Shown here: positions 19,650 through 35,421 of the stretch, one piece after another | Position numbering within the stretch: position 1 is the first letter of the stretch | Layout of the letters: each line of letters starts with the position of its first letter | DNA from: Cellulomonas gelida | Lineage (GTDB): Bacteria; Actinomycetota; Actinomycetes; Actinomycetales; Cellulomonadaceae | Direction: 5' to 3' | NCBI RefSeq assembly: GCF_006538725.1 | Contig: NZ_BJLQ01000006.1 | Location: forward strand, 62,001-126,000 | Length of the DNA: 64,000 bases | Position numbers and translations under genes: made by a program | The notes under the pieces: generated by a model | The model's database searches: none | The model's input: the letters and a program-made list of their open reading frames with translations, nothing else | What the model was told of the DNA's origin: nothing

Positions 19650-20291
19650 TCAGACCGTCGCGGAGACGTCGGACCACGCCAGGCGCGCGGCGCGCGGGTG
19701 GGGCGTGCCGACGCCGTCCCGGTGGCCCACGAGCACGACGAGCTGCGACTGCCAGCCCGACTCGGCGAAGAACTCGGCGTCGATCCCGGTGGTGTCCACG
19801 CCGCCGATGGGACCGGCGTCGAGCCCCGTCGCGCGCAGCGCGGTGATCAGGTAGCCGGTCTGGATGAGCGTGTTCTGGCGGGCCATCCCCGCGCGCTGCT
19901 CGGGCTGGGCCTCGAGCGCGTCGACCATCGACGCGCGGTGCGGGGCGAGGACGGGCAGGAGGCGGTGGAAGGCCGGGTCGGCGGCGACGACGAGCGTCAG
20001 CGGTGCCGCGAGGATGCGGTCGCGGTTGCCCTCGGCGGCGTGCGCGGCGAGGCGCGCCTTGCCCTCGTCGGAGCGCACGACGAGCAGGCGCAGCGGCGAG
20101 GTGTTCATGGCCGTCGGGCCCCACTTGAGCAGGTCGTAGACCGCCGCGAGCTCGTCGTCGGAGACGGGCTGGTCGGTGAAGGCGCCGATTGTGCGCGCCT
20201 CGCGGAACAGGAGGTCGGCGACCTCGTCGGCGACCGCGTACGCGGGCGTCGGGAAGTCGAGGGAGTCGATCGTCGCGCTGTCAGTCGTCAT
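19650..20291 (-). CDS. Nitroreductase-family protein, malonic semialdehyde reductase type
   Basis: A 213-residue FMN-dependent enzyme close to RutE/malonic semialdehyde reductases. Visible are the early [16 protein letters not shown], the FMN-site [40 protein letters not shown] and a final [11 protein letters not shown]. No other Rut pathway gene is nearby, so uracil breakdown cannot be assumed; reduction of reactive aldehydes or quinones is equally possible. The promoter region is AT-rich for this genome and contains a dyad (see the separate entry), suggesting regulation by a ligand-sensing repressor. Confidence 0.88.
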
Positions 20292-20315
20292 AGTTCAGTT
20301 GAAGCGTGAAGTAAC
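20290..20315 (-). promoter_or_regulatory. Candidate operator dyad before the nitroreductase
   Basis: An AT-rich patch beginning AGTTCAGTTGAA and ending GAAGTAACT, with AGTT and AACT at its two ends and a near-palindromic TTCAG/TTGAA core, abuts the ATG. It resembles HxlR/MarR-type sites, but the pairing is imperfect. Confidence 0.3.
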
Positions 20316-20393
20316 TCGGGCGCTTCCCGCGAGGGGAGTGAGGCTCGCCACACGGCCTCCGTGCCCCGGTTCGGACGCCGTCGCGCGGGGACC

Positions 20394-20399
20394 TACAGT
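20394..20399 (+). promoter_or_regulatory. -10 box for leaderless tsaD
   Basis: TACAGT, 7 bases before the ATG at 20407; no ribosome-binding site. Confidence 0.6.
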
Positions 20400-20406
20400 G
20401 GTCGCC

Positions 20407-21453
20407 ATGCCTGTCAGCGAGCCGCTGGTCCTGGGGATCGAGACCTCGTGCGACGAGACCGGGGTCGCGCTCGTGCGCGGGTACGACCTCCTCGTCGACG
20501 CCGTCGCGTCGTCCGTCGACGAGCACGCGCGGTTCGGCGGGATCATCCCCGAGATCGCGTCCCGTGCCCACCTCGAGGCCATGGTCCCGACGATCGAGCG
20601 CGCGCTGGCGACGGCCGAGGTGACGCTCGACGAGGTCGACGCGATCGCCGTGACCGCAGGCCCCGGGCTCGTCGGGCCGCTGACCGTCGGGGCGTCCGCC
20701 GCCAAGGCGCTCGCGATCGGCCTCGACAAGCCGCTGTACGGCGTCAACCACGTGATCGGTCACGCGGTGGTCGACGAGCTCGTCGACGGGCCGTTCCCCG
20801 AGCGGGTCATGGCGCTCGTCGTCTCCGGCGGGCACTCGTCCCTGCTCCTGCTCGACGACACGGTGCACGTGACCGAGCTCGGCTCGACGCTCGACGACGC
20901 CGCGGGCGAGGCGTTCGACAAGGTCGGCCGCCTGCTCGGCCTGCCCTACCCGGGCGGCCCGCACATCGACCGGCTGGCGCGCGAGGGCAACCCCGAGGCG
21001 ATCCGCTTCCCGCGCGGGCTGACCGCCGCCAAGGACCAGGCGAAGCACGCGGCCGACTTCTCGTTCTCGGGGCTCAAGACCGCGGTCGCCCGGTGGGTCG
21101 AGGCGCGCCAGGACGCGGGCGAGGAGCTGCCCCTGGCCGACGTCTCGGCGTCGTTCGCCGCGGCGGTCGCCGACGTGCTGACGGCCAAGACCATCGCGGC
21201 GTGCCGCGCGCACGACGTGCGCACGCTCGTCGTCGGCGGCGGCTTCTCCGCCAACTCCCAGCTGCGGGAGCTGGCGGCGGCGCGGTGCGCCGAAGCAGGC
21301 ATCGAGCTGCGCATCCCGCCGATCCGGTTCTGCACCGACAACGGCGCGATGATCGCGGCGCTCGGCTCGGCTGTGGTGCGCCGGGGGATGCGTCCGTCGT
21401 CGCTCGAGATCCCCGTCGACTCCTCGATGCCGCTGACCCAGGTGCTCGTCTGA
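20407..21453 (+). CDS. tsaD: tRNA N6-adenosine threonylcarbamoyltransferase
   Basis: Catalytic subunit that transfers threonylcarbamoyl to A37 of tRNA. The 348-residue protein has [14 protein letters not shown] at the N-terminus, the metal-binding histidines in VNHVIGHA, the [10 protein letters not shown] strand, [14 protein letters not shown] and [10 protein letters not shown], all in canonical order. The ATG is supported by the [10 protein letters not shown] alignment and by a -10 box ending 7 bases upstream. It is separated from its partners tsaE and tsaB by the rhodanese and the divergent nitroreductase, and has its own promoter. Confidence 0.97.
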
Positions 21454-21617: not shown

Positions 21618-24600
21618 GTGAGCGTGCACGACCGGTCCGAGCGTGAGCGCGTCACCGTCACGGTGGACGGCGTGGAGCTGGAGGTCGACGCCGGCCTGAC
21701 GATCCTGCAGGCTCTCGCGGCCGAGGGCGTCTCGATCCCGTCGCTGTGCCACGACGTGCGCATGGAACGCTCGAACGCGAGCTGCGGCCTGTGCATGGTC
21801 GAGGTGGGCCCCGACGCGCGTGACGTCAAGGCGTGCCTGACGCCGCTGTCCGCGGGGATGGTCGTCACCACGCGGTCGCCCCGGCTCGAGGAGTACCGCA
21901 AGGTGCGGCTCGAGCAGCTGCTGACCGACCACAACGCGGACTGCGTCGCGCCGTGCGTGCAGACGTGCCCCGCGAACGTCGACGTCCAGACCTACCTGCA
22001 GCACGTCGCGGACGGGAACTACGAGGCCGCGGTCCGGGTCATCAAGGACCGCAACCCGTTCCCGTCGGTGTGCGGGCGGGTGTGCCCGCACCTGTGCGAG
22101 TCGGCATGCCGCCGCAACCTCGTCGACGAGCCCGTGGCCATCAACTACGTCAAGCGCTTCGCGACCGACTGGGACATGGCGCGACCGACGCCGTGGATCC
22201 CGCGCACCGCACCGTCGACCGGCAAGCGGATCGCCGTCGTCGGCGCCGGCCCGTCGGGGCTGTCCGCCGCGTACTACAGCGCACTCGCCGGGCACGCCGT
22301 CACGGTGTTCGAGAAGCAGGAGCACGCGGGCGGGATGATGCGGTACGGCATCCCCGAGTACCGGCTCCCGAAGGCCACGCTGAGCCACGAGATCGACATC
22401 ATCCGCGCGCTCGGCGTCCAGGTGGTGACCGGCAAGGCGCTCGGCACGCACCTGAGCCTGGAGGACCTGCGCCGCGACTTCGACGCGGTCTACCTCGCGA
22501 TCGGCTCGTGGCGCGCGACCCCGCTGCGCATCGACGGCGAGAACCTCGAGGGCGTGTGGCTGGGCATCCAGTACCTCGAGCGCGTCGCGAAGGGCGACGA
22601 GATCCCGCTCGGCCGAACGGTCGTCATCGGCGGCGGCAACACCGCGATCGACTGCGCACGCACCGCGCTGCGCACGGGCGCGACGCACGTGCAGCTCGTC
22701 TACCGGCGCACGCGCGAGGAGATGCCCGCCGAGCCGTTCGAGGTCGAGGAGGCCGTCGCCGAGGGCGTCGAGATGCTCTACCTCACCGCACCCGAGCGGA
22801 TCACCGCCGACGAGACGGGCGCCAAGCGCCTGACGTGCCTGCGGATGGAGCTCGGTGAGGCCGACCGCACCGGGCGTCGTCGCCCCGTGCCCGTCGAGGG
22901 CAGCGAGTTCGAGATCGAGGCCGACACGATCATCGGCGCGATCGGGCAGAGCACGGACACGGCGTTCCTCTACTACGAGATGCCGGTGCACATCAGCACG
23001 TGGGTGCGCGGCCGGCCCGCGCACGGCGCCGAGGAGGCCGCGTACGCCGACCTGCCCGTGCGGCTCAACCAGTGGGGCGACGTCGAGGTCGACGGCCGCA
23101 CCATGCAGTCGTCCGAGGCGAAGATCTTCGCGGGCGGCGACTGCGTCACCGGTCCCGCCACGGTGATCCAGGCGGTCGCGGCCGGCCGGCGCGCCGCCGC
23201 GGCGATGTCGGACTTCGTCCTGCGCGGCTACGTGCGTCCCGGGCACGAGGACTACTCGTGCTCGCGCGGCACGCTCGAGGACCTGCCGCGGCACGAGTTC
23301 GAGGAGGTCGTGCGCGTGCCGCGCGCGACCATGCCCGCACTGCCCGTGGCCGAGCGCCTCGCGGGCTTCGCCGAGGTCGAGACCGGGCTCACCGAGGAGC
23401 AGGCACGCACCGAGGCGGCGCGGTGCCTGGAGTGCGGCTGCGCGAAGCAGGACTGCTGCCAGCTCCGCGACGAGGCGACCGCGCACGGCGTGGTGTTCGC
23501 GGCCCCGCTGCACGTGCGGCCGTACGAGCCCGTCGTCGCGGACCACCCGTTCATCGTCCGGGACAACAACAAGTGCATCGCGTGCGGTCTGTGCGTCAAG
23601 GCGTGCGCGGAGCTCGAGGGCCCGGGCGTGCTGGCGTTCCAGTACCACGAGGGCCGGCTCGTCGTCGGCACGCACAACGGGCTGCCGCTGTCGGAGACCG
23701 ACTGCGTCTCGTGCGGCCAGTGCGTGCGCGCGTGCCCGTGCGGCGCGCTGGACTACGTGCGCGAGCGCGGCGACGTGTTCACCGCGATCAACGACCCGAG
23801 CAAGGTCGTCGTCGGCTTCGTCGCCCCGGCCGTGCGGTCGGTCATCGCCGCGGAGTACGGGATCGAGCCCGCCGAGGCGAGCGCGTTCATCGCCGGGATG
23901 ATGCGCAAGGTCGGCTTCGACAAGGTGTTCGACTTCTCGTTCGCGGCGGACCTGACGATCCTCGAGGAGACCACCGAGTTCCTCGACCGGGTGGGCCGCG
24001 GCGGCGTCCTGCCGCAGTTCACGTCGTGCTGCCCGGGCTGGGTCAACCTCGTCGAACGGCGCTACCCCGAGCTCATCGACCACCTGTCGAGCTGCAAGAG
24101 CCCGCAGCAGATGATGGGCACGACCGTGAAGCACCACTTCGCCGCGCAGGCGGGGATCACGCTCGACGACCTGTACGTGGTGTCGATCGTGCCGTGCATC
24201 GCCAAGAAGTACGAGGCCGCGCGGCCCGAGTTCGCGCCCGACGGCGTGCGGGACGTCGACGCCGTGCTCACGACGACCGAGTTCCTCGAGATGATGCAGA
24301 TGCTGCGCCTCGAGGCGGCCGACGTGGAGCCCGGCGAGTTCGACGAGCCCTACTCGCGCGTCTCCGGCGCCGGCGTGCTGTTCGGCGCGTCGGGCGGCGT
24401 CGCCGAGGCCGCGATGCGCATGGCGGTCGAGCAGCTCACGGGCGAGCCCCTCGTCGAGCACCTGGACTTCCACGAGCTGCGCGGGCTCGAGGGGATCAAG
24501 GAGGCGACCGTCAGCGCCGGCGGCGTGGACGTGCGGGTCGCCGTGATCTCGGGCCTGGGCAACGCCGAGCCGCTCATCAAGCGGGTCATCGCGGGCGAGG

Positions 24601-24857
24601 ACGTCGGGTACGACCTCGTCGAGATCATGGCCTGCCCGGGCGGCTGCGTGAGCGGCGCCGGCCACCCGGTGCCGAAGTGCGCCGACGAGACGCCCGGCCG
24701 TCAGCAGGTGCTGGTCGAGATCGACCAGCTCTCGACGCTGCGCAAGTCCCAGGAGAACCCGGACATCCTGCGGCTCTACGACGAGTTCTACGGCGCGCCC
24801 GCGTCACCGCTCGCGCACGAGCTCCTGCACACCACCTACGCGCCGTTCCGCGGCTGA
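21618..24857 (+). CDS. [FeFe]-hydrogenase fused to a GltD-like NAD(P)H oxidoreductase
   Basis: A single 1079-residue electron-bifurcating-like or NAD(P)H-linked hydrogenase. In order: plant-type [2Fe-2S] domain (C44, C56, C59, C73); a Cys-rich segment C109/C113/C117 and VCGRVCPHLCESAC as in glutamate synthase small subunit; FAD Rossmann fold GAGPSG near 209; NAD(P)H fold GGGNTA near 336; the RCLECGC motif at 603; two [4Fe-4S] sites (C653-C663 and C696-C706); and an H-cluster domain with TSCCPGW (C804, C805), VPCIAKKYE (C860) and MACPGGC (C1006, C1010). All H-cluster ligands and the proton-relay cysteine are present. GTG 21618 follows AGGAGG by 6 bases. Maturases HydE/F/G are not in the window. 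An ABC importer follows at 20 bases. Confidence 0.93.
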   Translation: MSVHDRSERERVTVTVDGVELEVDAGLTILQALAAEGVSIPSLCHDVRMERSNASCGLCMVEVGPDARDVKACLTPLSAGMVVTTRSPRLEEYRKVRLEQLLTDHNADCVAPCVQTCPANVDVQTYLQHVADGNYEAAVRVIKDRNPFPSVCGRVCPHLCESACRRNLVDEPVAINYVKRFATDWDMARPTPWIPRTAPSTGKRIAVVGAGPSGLSAAYYSALAGHAVTVFEKQEHAGGMMRYGIPEYRLPKATLSHEIDIIRALGVQVVTGKALGTHLSLEDLRRDFDAVYLAIGSWRATPLRIDGENLEGVWLGIQYLERVAKGDEIPLGRTVVIGGGNTAIDCARTALRTGATHVQLVYRRTREEMPAEPFEVEEAVAEGVEMLYLTAPERITADETGAKRLTCLRMELGEADRTGRRRPVPVEGSEFEIEADTIIGAIGQSTDTAFLYYEMPVHISTWVRGRPAHGAEEAAYADLPVRLNQWGDVEVDGRTMQSSEAKIFAGGDCVTGPATVIQAVAAGRRAAAAMSDFVLRGYVRPGHEDYSCSRGTLEDLPRHEFEEVVRVPRATMPALPVAERLAGFAEVETGLTEEQARTEAARCLECGCAKQDCCQLRDEATAHGVVFAAPLHVRPYEPVVADHPFIVRDNNKCIACGLCVKACAELEGPGVLAFQYHEGRLVVGTHNGLPLSETDCVSCGQCVRACPCGALDYVRERGDVFTAINDPSKVVVGFVAPAVRSVIAAEYGIEPAEASAFIAGMMRKVGFDKVFDFSFAADLTILEETTEFLDRVGRGGVLPQFTSCCPGWVNLVERRYPELIDHLSSCKSPQQMMGTTVKHHFAAQAGITLDDLYVVSIVPCIAKKYEAARPEFAPDGVRDVDAVLTTTEFLEMMQMLRLEAADVEPGEFDEPYSRVSGAGVLFGASGGVAEAAMRMAVEQLTGEPLVEHLDFHELRGLEGIKEATVSAGGVDVRVAVISGLGNAEPLIKRVIAGEDVGYDLVEIMACPGGCVSGAGHPVPKCADETPGRQQVLVEIDQLSTLRKSQENPDILRLYDEFYGAPASPLAHELLHTTYAPFRG

Positions 24858-24877: not shown

Positions 24878-25942
24878 ATGAGGCTCACCGCGAGACTGCT
24901 CGGCGCGATGCTCGCGGTGGCGCTGACGACCGGGTGCGCCGCGTCGTCGACGGCGCAGCCCGCGGGGGGCGGCACGCCGGCCACGACGAGCGCCGCGACG
25001 AGCACCCCGACGCCGACCGCGTCGGCCGAGCGGGTCACCGTGCGGATCGCCGCACTGGCCGGTCCGACGACGATGGGGCTCGTCGGGCTCATGCAGGCCG
25101 CCGATGCGGGGACGGGCCGGCAGGACTACGAGGTGACGACGTACGGCACGCCCGACGAGGTCGTGCCGCTGCTCGTCAAGGGCGAGGTGGACGTCGCGCT
25201 GCTGCCCGCCAACCTGGCCGCGGTCGTCTACCAGCAGACCCGCACGGACGCGGGCCCTGCGGTGCAGGCGCTCACCGTCAACACCCTGGGCGTGCTCTCG
25301 GTGCTCGAGAACGGCACGAGCGTCCAGTCGCTCGCGGACCTGCGCGGGCGGACCGTGTACTCGACCGGCAAGGGGGCGAGCCCGCAGTACGTGCTCGAGC
25401 ACCTGCTGCGCCAGTCGGGGCTGACACCCGGCACCGACGTGACGGTCGAGTTCAAGTCGGAGGCCACCGAGGTCGCGGCGCTGCTCGCGGCGACCCCCGG
25501 CGCGGTCGGAGTGCTGCCGCAGCCGTACGCCACGGCGGTCATCGCCGGGAACCCCGGCGTGCGCGTCGCGGTGGACCTCACGCGGGCGTGGTCGGACCTC
25601 GGCAACGCGTCGCAGCTCGTCACCGGGGTCACCGTGGTGCGCACCGCGTTCGCCGACGAGCACCCGCAGGCGCTCGCGGACTTCCTCGCCGACGACGAGG
25701 CGTCCGTGACCTTCGTGAACGACTCGCCGGCCGAGGCCGCCGAGCTCGTGGTCGCGGCAGGCCTCGTCAAGGCCGTGCCCGTCGCCCAGGCGGCGATCCC
25801 GGCGAGCCACCTCGTGTTCCTCACCGGCGACGCGCTGCGGCCCGCGCTCGAGGGGTACCTGCAGGTCCTGCACGACGCGCAGCCGAAGTCCGTGGGCGGG
25901 GCGATGCCCGGCGACGACTTCTACCTCGCGGACGCGGGCTAG
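24878..25942 (+). CDS. ABC transporter substrate-binding lipoprotein (NMT1/SsuA-like)
   Basis: A 354-residue lipoprotein with lipobox LTTGC at residues 16-20, a Ser/Thr/Pro-rich spacer to about residue 48, then a two-lobed periplasmic-binding fold of the NMT1/NitT-TauT class (GEVDVALLPANLAAVV, LADLRGRTVYSTGKGASPQYVLEHLL, GVLPQPYATAV). These features resemble binding proteins for sulfonates, thiamine precursors or similar small organics, and the ligand cannot be chosen from sequence. It starts 20 bases after the hydrogenase stop with GAGGAG as ribosome-binding site, so it is probably in the same transcript. Confidence 0.88.
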   Translation: MRLTARLLGAMLAVALTTGCAASSTAQPAGGGTPATTSAATSTPTPTASAERVTVRIAALAGPTTMGLVGLMQAADAGTGRQDYEVTTYGTPDEVVPLLVKGEVDVALLPANLAAVVYQQTRTDAGPAVQALTVNTLGVLSVLENGTSVQSLADLRGRTVYSTGKGASPQYVLEHLLRQSGLTPGTDVTVEFKSEATEVAALLAATPGAVGVLPQPYATAVIAGNPGVRVAVDLTRAWSDLGNASQLVTGVTVVRTAFADEHPQALADFLADDEASVTFVNDSPAEAAELVVAAGLVKAVPVAQAAIPASHLVFLTGDALRPALEGYLQVLHDAQPKSVGGAMPGDDFYLADAG

Positions 25943-25961: not shown

Positions 25962-26783
25962 GTGACCGACGCGAGCGAGGTGGTCGGCGCCCGGGCACCC
26001 GTCCGTCGCGGGCGGTTCCTCGTCGCCGTCGCCTGCTGGCTCGTGGTGTGGCAGGTGGGGGCTGTGGCGCTCGGCCAGCCGATCCTGCTCGTCGGGCCGT
26101 GGGACGTGGCGGTGCGGCTCGTCGAGCTCGTACCGACCGGGACCTTCTGGGCCACGGTCGCCCGGACGCTCGCCGGCGTCGTCCTGGGCTTCACGGCCGC
26201 GGCCGTGGCGGGGGTGCTCCTCGCGGCGGCGTCGGCGGCCTCGTCGTGGGCCGACGCGATGCTGGCACCCCTGATCTCCACGATCCGCGCGACGCCCGTG
26301 GTCGCGTTCATCATCCTGCTGCTGCTCTGGACCGACTCGTCGCGGCTCGCGGCCGTCGTCGCCTTCCTCATGGCGCTGCCGATCATGTACACGAACGTGC
26401 TCGAGGGGATCCGGAACCGCGACCGCCGACTGCTGGAGATGACCCGCGTCTTCGCCGTGCCGTGGCCGCGGCGCGTGCTCGCGGTGGACGTGCCCGGCGT
26501 GCTGCCGTACTTCGTCGCGGGCTGCCGGACCGGCGTCGGGCTCGCGTGGAAGAGCGGGATCGCGGCCGAGGTGATCGGGCTGCCCGCGGGCACGATCGGC
26601 GAGCAGATGTACCAGGCGAAGCTGTTCCTGGCGACGGCCGACCTGTTCGCGTGGACGGTCGTGGTCGTCGTGCTGGCCGCGCTGACCGAGCGCGTGGTGC
26701 TCGCGCTGCTGGAGCGCGCGCGGCGACGGCTCGCGGGCGAGCCCGCGCCGCCGCTCATCGACCCGGCGGGTGGTGCCCGATGA
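25962..26783 (+). CDS. ABC transporter permease (SsuC/TauC-like)
   Basis: A 273-residue inner-membrane permease with about six helices. The coupling region reads EMTRVFAVPWPRRVLAVDVPGVLPYF near residues 160-186, followed by GLAWKSGIAAEVIGLPAGTIG, which is the signature of the nitrate/sulfonate/taurine class. The GTG start is 19 bases after the binding-protein stop, and the stop overlaps the ATPase start (ATGA). It should form a dimer working with the flanking lipoprotein and ATPase. Confidence 0.9.
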   Translation: MTDASEVVGARAPVRRGRFLVAVACWLVVWQVGAVALGQPILLVGPWDVAVRLVELVPTGTFWATVARTLAGVVLGFTAAAVAGVLLAAASAASSWADAMLAPLISTIRATPVVAFIILLLLWTDSSRLAAVVAFLMALPIMYTNVLEGIRNRDRRLLEMTRVFAVPWPRRVLAVDVPGVLPYFVAGCRTGVGLAWKSGIAAEVIGLPAGTIGEQMYQAKLFLATADLFAWTVVVVVLAALTERVVLALLERARRRLAGEPAPPLIDPAGGAR

Positions 26784-27439
26784 CCGAACCGCGCGACGAC
26801 ATGGCGCTGCACGACGACATGGCGCTGCACGACGTCATCGCGCTGCACGACGTCACCGTGCGCTACGGCGAGAACGTGGTCCTGGACCGGGTCTCGCTCG
26901 AGCTGCCCACCGGCACGACGACCGCGCTGACGGGCCCCAACGGCGTCGGGAAGACGACGACCGTGCGTGTGCTCCTCGGGCTCGTGCGGCCCTCGTCGGG
27001 CCGCGTGGCCGGCCTGCACGAGTGCACGCGGGCCGCCGCGTTCCAGGAGGACCGGCTGTGCGCGCACCTGTCCGCCGCGGCGAACGTGCGGCTCGTCCTG
27101 CCACGCGCCGCCGAGGCCGGGGTCGAGGACGGGCTGCGCGCGGTCGGGCTCGACGAGGCCGCGTGGCACGTGCCGGTGCGCACGCTGTCGGGTGGGCAGC
27201 GACGACGGGTCGCGCTCGTCCGCGCGCTGCTGCCACCAGCCGACCTCGTCGTGCTCGACGAGCCGTTCGTCGGGATCGACGCCGCGAGCCGCGACGCGGT
27301 GCTGGCCTGGACCCGCGACCGGCTGGCCGGGCGCACCGCGCTCGTGGTGACCCACGACCCCACCGAGGCCGCGGCCCTCGGTGCGACGCTCGTGCGACTC
27401 GACCCGCCGCGCACGGTGAGCGATCAGGACGATGCCTAG
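26780..27439 (+). CDS. ABC transporter ATP-binding protein
   Basis: A 219-residue nucleotide-binding subunit with Walker A GPNGVGKTT, signature LSGGQRRRVALVRALL, Walker B LVVLDEPF and switch histidine VVTHDP. It is shorter than SsuB/TauB (about 250 residues) and lacks a C-terminal extension. The ATG overlaps the permease stop. The first 25 residues consist of three copies of an 18-base repeat (see the repeat entry), each of the first two offering an extra in-frame ATG, so the true start could be 26780, 26801 or 26819. Confidence 0.92.
   Translation: MTEPRDDMALHDDMALHDVIALHDVTVRYGENVVLDRVSLELPTGTTTALTGPNGVGKTTTVRVLLGLVRPSSGRVAGLHECTRAAAFQEDRLCAHLSAAANVRLVLPRAAEAGVEDGLRAVGLDEAAWHVPVRTLSGGQRRRVALVRALLPPADLVVLDEPFVGIDAASRDAVLAWTRDRLAGRTALVVTHDPTEAAALGATLVRLDPPRTVSDQDDA
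26795..26848 (+). repeat. Triple 18-bp tandem repeat at the ATPase N-terminus
   Basis: Three direct copies at 26795-26812, 26813-26830 and 26831-26848. The first two are identical and the third has three changes. They encode DDMALH-DDMALH-DVIALH and lie just before the first beta strand. Confidence 0.9.
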
Positions 27440-35013: not shown

Positions 35014-35039
35014 CTGGCACTCTCGGTATGAGTGTGCCA
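35014..35039 (+). promoter_or_regulatory. Second, degenerate CIRCE-like inverted repeat
   Basis: CTGGCACTC-N7-GAGTGTGCCA in the predicted 5' leader of groES. The arms resemble CIRCE but the spacer is two bases short. It may be a second HrcA site or an RNA hairpin. Confidence 0.5.
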
Positions 35040-35124
35040 ACGCGCCAGGTCTCCGGCACCCGCGACGACGGTGGCTGGGCGCGACCCACTGAACCACTCA
35101 ACACACGCGAAGGGGAGGTCCGCA

Positions 35125-35421
35125 GTGTCGGTCTCCATCAAGCCGCTCGAGGACCGGATCGTCGTGAAGCCCCTGGAGGCGGAGACGACGACGGCCTCGG
35201 GTCTGGTCATCCCGGACTCCGCCAAGGAGAAGCCCCAGGAGGGCGAGGTCCTCGCGATCGGTCCGGGTCGGATCGACGACAAGGGCAACCGCGTCCCGCT
35301 CGACGTCGCTGTCGGTGACAAGGTCATCTACTCGAAGTACGGCGGCACCGAGGTCAAGTACTCCGGCGAGGAGTACCTGATCCTCTCGGCGCGCGACATC
35401 CTGGCGGTCGTCGTCAAGTGA
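35125..35421 (+). CDS. groES: Co-chaperonin GroES
   Basis: The 98-residue cap of the GroEL chaperonin. Features are [18 protein letters not shown], the mobile-loop [21 protein letters not shown], and [22 protein letters not shown]. The GTG follows AGGGGAGG. It is heat-shock regulated, by the CIRCE element overlapping its promoter. Unlike the common groES-groEL operon, a strong terminator comes 33 bases after the stop and no groEL follows, so GroEL must be encoded elsewhere. Confidence 0.98.

What the first reader, a model, noticed from the sequence alone, without database searches (positions are those of the whole stretch)
21618..24857. All-in-one NAD(P)H-linked [FeFe]-hydrogenase in a cellulolytic actinobacterium
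One polypeptide combines [2Fe-2S], GltD-like flavin/NAD(P)H, two [4Fe-4S] and a complete H-cluster domain (Cys805, 860, 1006, 1010 plus proton-relay Cys804). Seen in sequence: every ligand. Known: [FeFe]-hydrogenase motifs L1-L3, and GltD-type NAD(P)H modules fused to hydrogenases in some anaerobes. Inferred: NAD(P)H-driven H2 production or uptake without separate HydB/HydC subunits. L2 has V for M and L3 ends GAGHP rather than the usual GGGxP, so it sits away from the textbook consensus.
Basis: partly seen in the sequence, partly recalled or inferred. Interest (0 to 1): 0.75.

Follow-up and report, generated by a model that had tools for sequence, protein, structure and literature searches.

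The report
Maturase-less hydrogenase beside a nutrient importer
A Cellulomonas-type bacterium carries a complete hydrogen enzyme, but its genome shows none of the three proteins known to build that enzyme's metal cofactor; instead the enzyme shares an operon with a transporter that might import the cofactor or one of its parts.

Summary
Window 21618-24857 encodes a 1079-aa group A [FeFe]-hydrogenase with a GltD-type FAD/NAD(P) module inside its N-terminal iron-sulfur region and every H-cluster ligand in place. The V-for-M and GAGHP changes are typical of its clade.

Of 34 further Actinomycetota genomes with group A hydrogenase, 30 lack HydG.

Twenty bases downstream starts an ABC importer. It lies beside the hydrogenase in 10 of those 13 genomes. 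Its binding protein occurs in 35 of 35 hydrogenase-bearing genomes of the phylum sample and 16 of 361 others. It has switched partners (fused group A, HydABC-type, group B). In three genomes without HydG and HydF it sits with a TM1266 regulator, which lies near HydG in three HydG-bearing ones.

Best explanation, inferred: the importer supplies the H-cluster's [2Fe] unit or an essential precursor. Against it, the importer also occurs in genomes with maturases and in an apparent Atopobium parvulum, reported to lack hydrogenases.

The parts
21618..24857 (+). Fused [2Fe-2S]/GltD/[4Fe-4S]/H-cluster protein (group A [FeFe]-hydrogenase, 1079 aa, GTG start)
   Evidence: dN/dS 0.13-0.15 against C. persica and C. 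uda
21645..21878 (+). [2Fe-2S] domain (Fer2_4, residues 10-87)
21942..22181 (+). Fer4_20 domain (residues 109-188), start of the GltD module
22227..23186 (+). GltD-type FAD/NAD(P) domain (Pyr_redox_2, residues 204-523)
   Evidence: residues 12-446 and 482-711 match the large subunits of NfnABC and StnABC in order
23553..23750 (+). [4Fe-4S] pair (residues 646-711)
23802..24659 (+). H-cluster domain (Fe_hyd_lg_C, residues 729-1014) with C804, C805, C860, C1006, C1010
24699..24842 (+). Fe_hyd_SSU domain (residues 1028-1075)
24878..25942 (+). Lipoprotein substrate-binding protein of an ABC importer (354 aa, lipobox TTGC), 20 bases after the hydrogenase stop
   Evidence: AlphaFold2 pLDDT 89, best fold match 3hn0
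25962..26783 (+). ABC importer permease (BPD_transp_1); start as listed for the open frame
26780..27439 (+). ABC importer ATPase (ABC_tran); start inferred from the frame

Best explanation
The gene encodes a soluble NAD(P)H-linked [FeFe]-hydrogenase: electrons pass between NAD(P)H/FAD in the GltD module and the H-cluster through Fe-S clusters in one chain. The cell does not build the H-cluster's [2Fe] unit with HydE/F/G. The ABC importer encoded in the same operon brings in the [2Fe] unit, or an essential organometallic or ligand precursor, from outside; it is then inserted into apo-enzyme that already holds its [4Fe-4S] half. Shown: the architecture, intact active-site residues, absence of detectable maturases, the gene order and the co-occurrence in the phylum sample. 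Inferred: NAD(P)H as donor, H2 turnover, co-transcription and the importer's cargo.
For: Ligands and proton-path residues intact; dN/dS of the H-domain 0.11-0.17. In the 100%-complete genome no HydG match and no HydE or HydF over cut-off; in 13 genomes with the gene HydG 0 of 13, HydF 0 of 13 at 1e-30, HydE over cut-off 0 of 13, with G745 ringing as control. Importer beside the hydrogenase in 10 of these 13. Binding protein in 35 of 35 hydrogenase-bearing and 16 of 361 other phylum genomes (Fisher p 4e-38, not corrected for kinship). Partner switching: importers of G055/G112, beside HydABC-type HydA, nest inside the clade of importers of fused hydrogenases, and in 5 genomes of genus code g194 the importer lies beside a group B hydrogenase. 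TM1266-family regulator (TIGR03959, 106-116 bits, cut-off 60.8) beside the importer in G402, G464 and G731, which lack HydG and HydF, and in Vescimonas, but near HydG in G602, G723 and G745. Closely related hydrogenases occur in HydG-plus and HydG-less genomes of one genus. Recalled: synthetic [2Fe] complexes can mature apo-hydrogenase, also in living cells; PMC12578642 section 7 reports activation with [2Fe]adt.
Against: No ligand is known; the fold (SsuA/TauA/Thi5/PqqT relatives) fits many cargoes. HydG-plus G602 and G723 have strong importer hits, and G570 and G745 a diverged form about 10 kb from one of their group A genes. Acetoanaerobium has HydG, HydF and a 37%-identical importer with no hydrogenase within 12 kb; in Vescimonas and Subdoligranulum too no hydrogenase lies within 10 kb of it. 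Eleven phylum genomes without a TIGR02512 hit have strong binding-protein hits; one, G696, has the exact length of the Atopobium parvulum genome, reported without hydrogenase genes (PMC6306167, passages). In 13 of 30 HydG-less phylum genomes the importer is on another contig or far from the group A gene. Of the 13 genomes, G140 and G217 show no importer beside the gene and G194 cannot be judged. Much of the co-occurrence may reflect shared ancestry of Coriobacteriia-like families. HydE was not searched in most of the phylum genomes.
Confidence: 0.4

Rival explanations
1. The importer carries a general nutrient or cofactor precursor (vitamin, sulfonate, metal chelate) useful in the same anaerobic physiology, and the H-cluster is built by an unknown internal pathway that needs no HydE/F/G.
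For: Importer present in HydG-plus genomes and in the apparently hydrogenase-less G696; in 13 of 30 HydG-less genomes it lies away from the group A gene; the fold family has broad ligands.
Against: Gene order with three kinds of [FeFe]-hydrogenase and pairing with the TM1266 regulator; in the phylum sample the only other hit within the own class is a 75-bit one in G054.
Confidence: 0.25
2. The protein never carries the [2Fe] unit: it is an NAD(P)H oxidoreductase whose H-domain holds only the [4Fe-4S] cluster and does another redox job or none.
For: No maturases found in the own genome and 12 others; HydG and HydF are missing in many further genera.
Against: Second-shell and proton-path residues are kept across the fused clade, and the H-domain is under purifying selection; closely related hydrogenases occur with HydG in sister genomes of another branch.
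Confidence: 0.17
3. An ordinary hydrogenase matured by HydE/F/G homologues too divergent for the models, or missed through assembly gaps.
For: Homology searches can miss very divergent proteins; many genomes are drafts, and G712 (200 contigs) could be a gap.
Against: The HydG search returned no first-look candidate in the own genome; one- or two-contig genomes G293, G393, G648 and G703 also lack HydG; the same model gives 507-904 bits in four relatives and rings in Thermotoga.
Confidence: 0.13

Closest known systems
Group A [FeFe]-hydrogenases (CpI; HydA1 of Thermoanaerobacter kivui and Acetobacterium woodii)
   Same: H-domain, ligands, proton path, small-subunit domain
   Different: GltD module nested in the N-terminal region; no HydE/F/G found in the genome; V at the L2 methionine, GAGHP at L3
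Large subunits of NfnABC (9bov) and StnABC (8oh5)
   Same: Residues 12-446 and 482-711 align in order with their [2Fe-2S]-GltD-[4Fe-4S] part
   Different: The C-terminal part is an H-cluster domain; no partner subunits seen in the locus
Two-gene GltD-HydA pair of Collinsella and relatives
   Same: Separate GltD-like gene (37-42% identity over most of residues 90-600; one shorter alignment at 48%) next to hydA, in many followed by the same importer
   Different: The window has them fused, with GltD inserted inside the HydA N-terminal region
SsuA/TauA/NMT1-type ABC importers; solved relative 3hn0
   Same: Fold of the binding protein (TM-score to 3hn0 0.86-0.88 by target length, 0.68-0.71 by query length)
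   Different: Below the curated score of SsuA_fam (52 against 163.5 bits); own conserved signature; gene order with [FeFe]-hydrogenases

Membership tests
Group A [FeFe]-hydrogenase (TIGR02512) | Model score over the curated cut-off | tested here: met
   439.4 against 405.95 bits
Group A [FeFe]-hydrogenase (TIGR02512) | Four [4Fe-4S]H cysteines and the proton-path residues (C299, E279, S319, E282, R286 of CpI; roles recalled) | tested here: met
Group A [FeFe]-hydrogenase (TIGR02512) | Maturases HydE, HydF, HydG encoded in the genome (usual, not strictly defining) | tested here: not met
Group A [FeFe]-hydrogenase (TIGR02512) | H-cluster present and H2 turnover | not testable with these tools
   needs spectroscopy and assay
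NADH-dependent [FeFe]-hydrogenase group A6 (NF040763) | Model score over the curated cut-off | tested here: not met
   602.2 against 765 bits
Narf/Nar1-type proteins lacking the H-cluster | No complete H-cluster motifs (feature recalled); nearest kin not hydrogenases | tested here: not met
   motifs complete; nearest solved chains to the C-terminal part are hydrogenases; no Narf sequence was put in the tree
NfnABC/StnABC large subunit | N-terminal [2Fe-2S]-GltD-[4Fe-4S] module | tested here: met
NfnABC/StnABC large subunit | The rest of those ~1175-residue chains (beyond about residue 671) in place of an H-cluster domain | tested here: not met
   match ends at chain residue 671; an H-cluster domain follows in the window protein
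Aliphatic sulfonate importer SsuA family (TIGR01728), for the binding protein | Model score over the curated cut-off | tested here: not met
   52.1 against 163.5 bits

The most novel reading that the evidence does not exclude
Cofactor salvage for [FeFe]-hydrogenases: a dedicated ABC importer takes up the H-cluster's [2Fe] unit (or an Fe-CO-CN precursor) made by other microbes, so hydrogenases of several groups work in bacteria that have lost or never had HydE/F/G. Hydrogenase plus importer would be a mobile, self-sufficient module, and the H-cluster unit a shared currency between species, as cobalamin is.
Probability: 0.33. Interest if true: 0.95.

Novelty: new variant of a known kind. Interest (0 to 1): 0.77.

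Why it matters
That a few species encode [FeFe]-hydrogenases without the three maturases has been noted in print (PMC3226654, passages), and Giardia and Entamoeba are eukaryotic cases (recalled). How such enzymes get their cofactor is, as far as I know, open. This locus and its relatives give a concrete, testable candidate: an importer linked to [FeFe]-hydrogenases of three types in Actinomycetota, including the gut bacterium Collinsella aerofaciens. If true, H2 production in such bacteria would depend on neighbours, and a natural uptake route for an organometallic cofactor would be in hand. If false, the same genes still mark a widespread set of hydrogenases whose activity should not be assumed from sequence.

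Tried and rejected
Narf/Nar1 reading: rejected on motifs and nearest kin. Assembly gap: unlikely for the own genome and for one- or two-contig G293, G393, G648, G703. HydF-like hits in the own genome are GTPase-domain matches (best 77.7 bits, cut-off 325.55). H2 production of Collinsella as proof of activity: dropped, because PMC12578642 also reports formate hydrogenlyases in Coriobacteraceae, and the text seen (section 7 and passages) gives no per-strain value for C. aerofaciens or Olsenella umbonata; it says that 1 of 13 isolates with group B genes did not make high levels of H2, unnamed. For Cellulomonas uda the passages seen (12 of 19 places in PMC8961044; two in PMC10891623) mention no H2 measurement. 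The full-length structure model was too weak for distances; its search listed NfnABC/StnABC chains and hydrogenases. Literature searches for a hydrogenase-linked importer or maturase-less Actinobacteria listed nothing whose title or abstract start describes it; of the listed papers only PMC3226654 and PMC9705837 were opened, by passages. The library lacks most subscription journals and preprints. In one search the queries labelled HydG, HydF and HydE came from wrong frames or proteins; those rows were not used. HydG and HydF of Vescimonas and Subdoligranulum were sought only in plasmid-collection records. each drew 396 genomes of the phylum; that it was the same draw is inferred from the handles.
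Full report
WHAT IS THERE. Window 21618-24857 (+) is one open frame of 1079 aa. In order it holds a [2Fe-2S] domain (residues 10-87), a Fer4_20 domain (109-188), a GltD-type FAD/NAD(P) domain (204-523), a [4Fe-4S] pair (646-711), the H-cluster domain (729-1014) and the small-subunit domain (1028-1075). TIGR02512 (group A) scores 439.4 bits against a cut-off of 405.95; the A6 model scores 602 against 765. The nearest solved chains to the C-terminal part are HydA1 of electron-bifurcating hydrogenases and CpI. Residues 12-446 and 482-711 match, in order, the large subunits of NfnABC and StnABC. In the alignment with ordinary HydA the conserved half-sites H105/C109 and C608/C614 fall on either side of the GltD part, so I infer that GltD was inserted inside the HydA N-terminal region, not added at an end.

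ACTIVE SITE. FTSCCPGW, VPCIAKK and EIMACPGGCVSGAGHP are present, as are the EExxE..R and SSxKSPQQ stretches that hold the CpI proton path (roles of the CpI residues recalled). V for M is seen in 9 of the 10 fused proteins, the window's included (Actinotalea has M), and GAG in 10 of 10; GAGQP also occurs in a HydA of the HydG-bearing genome G745. These changes therefore mark a clade, not a loss. H-domain dN/dS against C. uda and C. persica is 0.11-0.17. In a quick tree of 53 H-domains the 10 fused proteins form one clade at 100; the tool warned that long branches and the distant group B outgroup make deeper joins unsure.

WHERE IT LIVES. The window is G000:C6:62001-126000 of a 3.79-Mb, 100%-complete assembly. 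Homologues are in Cellulomonas uda and C. persica (91% and 94% over residues 601-1079) and in an Actinotalea (73%). In the order, 10 of 396 genomes have a match at E <= 1e-100. Seven of these plus the three named genomes carry the full-length fused protein. G194 is cut by its contig end. G055 and G112 have a different, HydABC-like type with the GltD part in a neighbouring gene. tsaD (20176-21453) lies upstream, and groES (35032-35421) further downstream. Fourteen listed genomes of the same genus have no match at that threshold.

NO MATURASES. In the own genome HydG has no match and no first-look candidate; HydE has one 20.9-bit fragment (cut-off 254.6); HydF has only GTPase-domain hits up to 77.7 bits (cut-off 325.55). 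In 13 genomes with the gene (the 10 plus C. uda, Actinotalea, C. persica): HydG 0 of 13, HydF 0 of 13 at 1e-30, HydE over cut-off 0 of 13, while the control genome G745 rings. Among them G293 is a single contig and G393 two. In the phylum sample 35 of 396 genomes have TIGR02512. Of the 34 besides the own, 4 have HydG over cut-off (G570, G602, G723, G745) and 5 have HydF (those plus G699). HydE was searched in only four of these 34. HydG-less ones include one-contig genomes G648 and G703. Closely related hydrogenases occur with HydG (G602, G723) and without (G491, G502) in one genus, so the enzyme's sequence does not visibly decay when HydG is missing.

THE IMPORTER. Twenty bases after the hydrogenase stop starts a lipoprotein binding protein (24878-25942), then a permease (25962-26783) and an ATPase (26780-27439). 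Of the 13 genomes, the cassette is directly beside the hydrogenase in 10: G000, C. uda, C. persica, Actinotalea, G030, G055, G084, G112, G293, G393. It is not beside it in G140 or G217 (only 1.5 kb of downstream contig in G217), and G194 cannot be judged. For the 30 HydG-less phylum genomes besides the own: beside the group A gene in 12 (in G697 a diverged form), within 10 kb in 3 (G516, G692, G719), beside a group B hydrogenase in 2 (G491, G502), and far away or on another contig in 13. In the 4 HydG-plus genomes, none of 6 group A loci read has it within the stretch; in G570 and G745 a diverged form lies about 10 kb from one group A gene, and in G602 and G723 it is on another contig, beside a group B gene.

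CO-OCCURRENCE. A profile of 23 binding proteins (A1) finds 51 of 396 phylum genomes: 35 of 35 with hydrogenase (31 at E <= 1e-110; G570, G697, G712, G745 only at 6e-41 to 2e-48) and 16 of 361 without, 11 of these strong (same draw as inferred from the handles). Fisher p is 4e-38 by genome and 1e-23 by genus (21 of 21 against 9 of 225). Neither is corrected for kinship, and much of the signal lies in Coriobacteriia-like families. G760 has the contig length and coordinates of Collinsella aerofaciens TSDC17.2-1.1, whose record reads NAD(P)-binding protein, [FeFe] hydrogenase group A, ABC binding protein, ATP-binding cassette protein; that genus code g194 is Collinsella follows from this.

WHY IT LOOKS TIED TO THE H-CLUSTER. 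First, it changes hydrogenase partners. The importers of G055/G112, next to HydABC-type HydA, nest within the importers of fused hydrogenases (95* with G084), while their HydA do not. In five g194 genomes (G491, G502, G602, G610, G723) it lies beside a group B hydrogenase (TIGR04105 620 bits in G610, the other four 80-82% identical to it); G610 counts as hydrogenase-less only because group B was not searched. Second, a TM1266-family regulator (TIGR03959, 106-116 bits, cut-off 60.8) sits between hydA and the importer in G402 and G464, beside the importer in G731 and in the Clostridia member Vescimonas fastidiosa, but near HydG (0.1-1.2 kb) in G602, G723 and G745. No other TM1266 hit appeared in the DNA held, nearly all of which was fetched for nearness to these genes.

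WHAT SPEAKS AGAINST. The importer is also in HydG-plus G602 and G723 and, at 37% identity, in Acetoanaerobium, which has HydG and HydF and no hydrogenase within 12 kb of it. Vescimonas and Subdoligranulum have no hydrogenase within 10 kb of it either, and the Subdoligranulum binding protein falls among those of the fused hydrogenases. G696, whose contig length equals the published genome of Atopobium parvulum (abstract), has it, though that species was annotated without hydrogenase genes and made only trace H2 (PMC6306167, passages). In three genomes a diverged copy lies by a BcrAD/DUF2229 activase or in the same setting. The binding protein's fold (AlphaFold2 pLDDT 89) is nearest to 3hn0 and then SsuA, TauA and others such as PqqT and Thi5, so its cargo cannot be read from the fold. 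Distant homologues (27-35%) in Alphaproteobacteria stand upstream of NnrS genes, often with TonB receptors.

MECHANISM AND NOVELTY. Electron path (inferred): NAD(P)H, FAD, Fe-S relays, H-cluster, either direction. Cofactor supply (inferred, 0.4): import of the [2Fe] unit or a precursor. PMC3226654 states that a few species encode [FeFe]-hydrogenases but lack the three maturases (passages), so the bare absence is not new. I found no description of an importer linked to it in the listings of searches. The protein itself is a new variant of a known kind; import of an H-cluster precursor would be a new kind of cofactor acquisition.

Noticed in passing
window 22971-23042 (about residues 452-475): A stretch of 24 residues (YYEMPVHISTWVRGRPAHGAEEAA) is present only in the three Cellulomonas proteins, not in the other seven fused homologues.
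   Followed up: no
L161, L163, L171: A long-branched copy of the importer lies beside a BcrAD/DUF2229 activase-type protein in G424 and, by shared neighbours, in G449 and G688.
   Followed up: partly
L199, L200, L201, L202, L203, L204: Distant homologues of the importer in Alphaproteobacteria are followed by NnrS-family genes in 6 of 6 contexts read, with a TonB receptor in the neighbourhood of 4.
   Followed up: partly
L023, L024, L029, L030 and others: Some group A H-domains have TSCSPGW instead of TSCCPGW, so the second cysteine is serine, also in the solved HydA1 7q4v.
   Followed up: no
L207 (G699:C35): G699 has HydF over cut-off but no HydG over cut-off.
   Followed up: no
L167, L169, L170, L172: Four related small genomes (genus code g257, one apparently Atopobium parvulum) keep the importer without a TIGR02512 hydrogenase, between peptidase genes and coaE.
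   Followed up: partly
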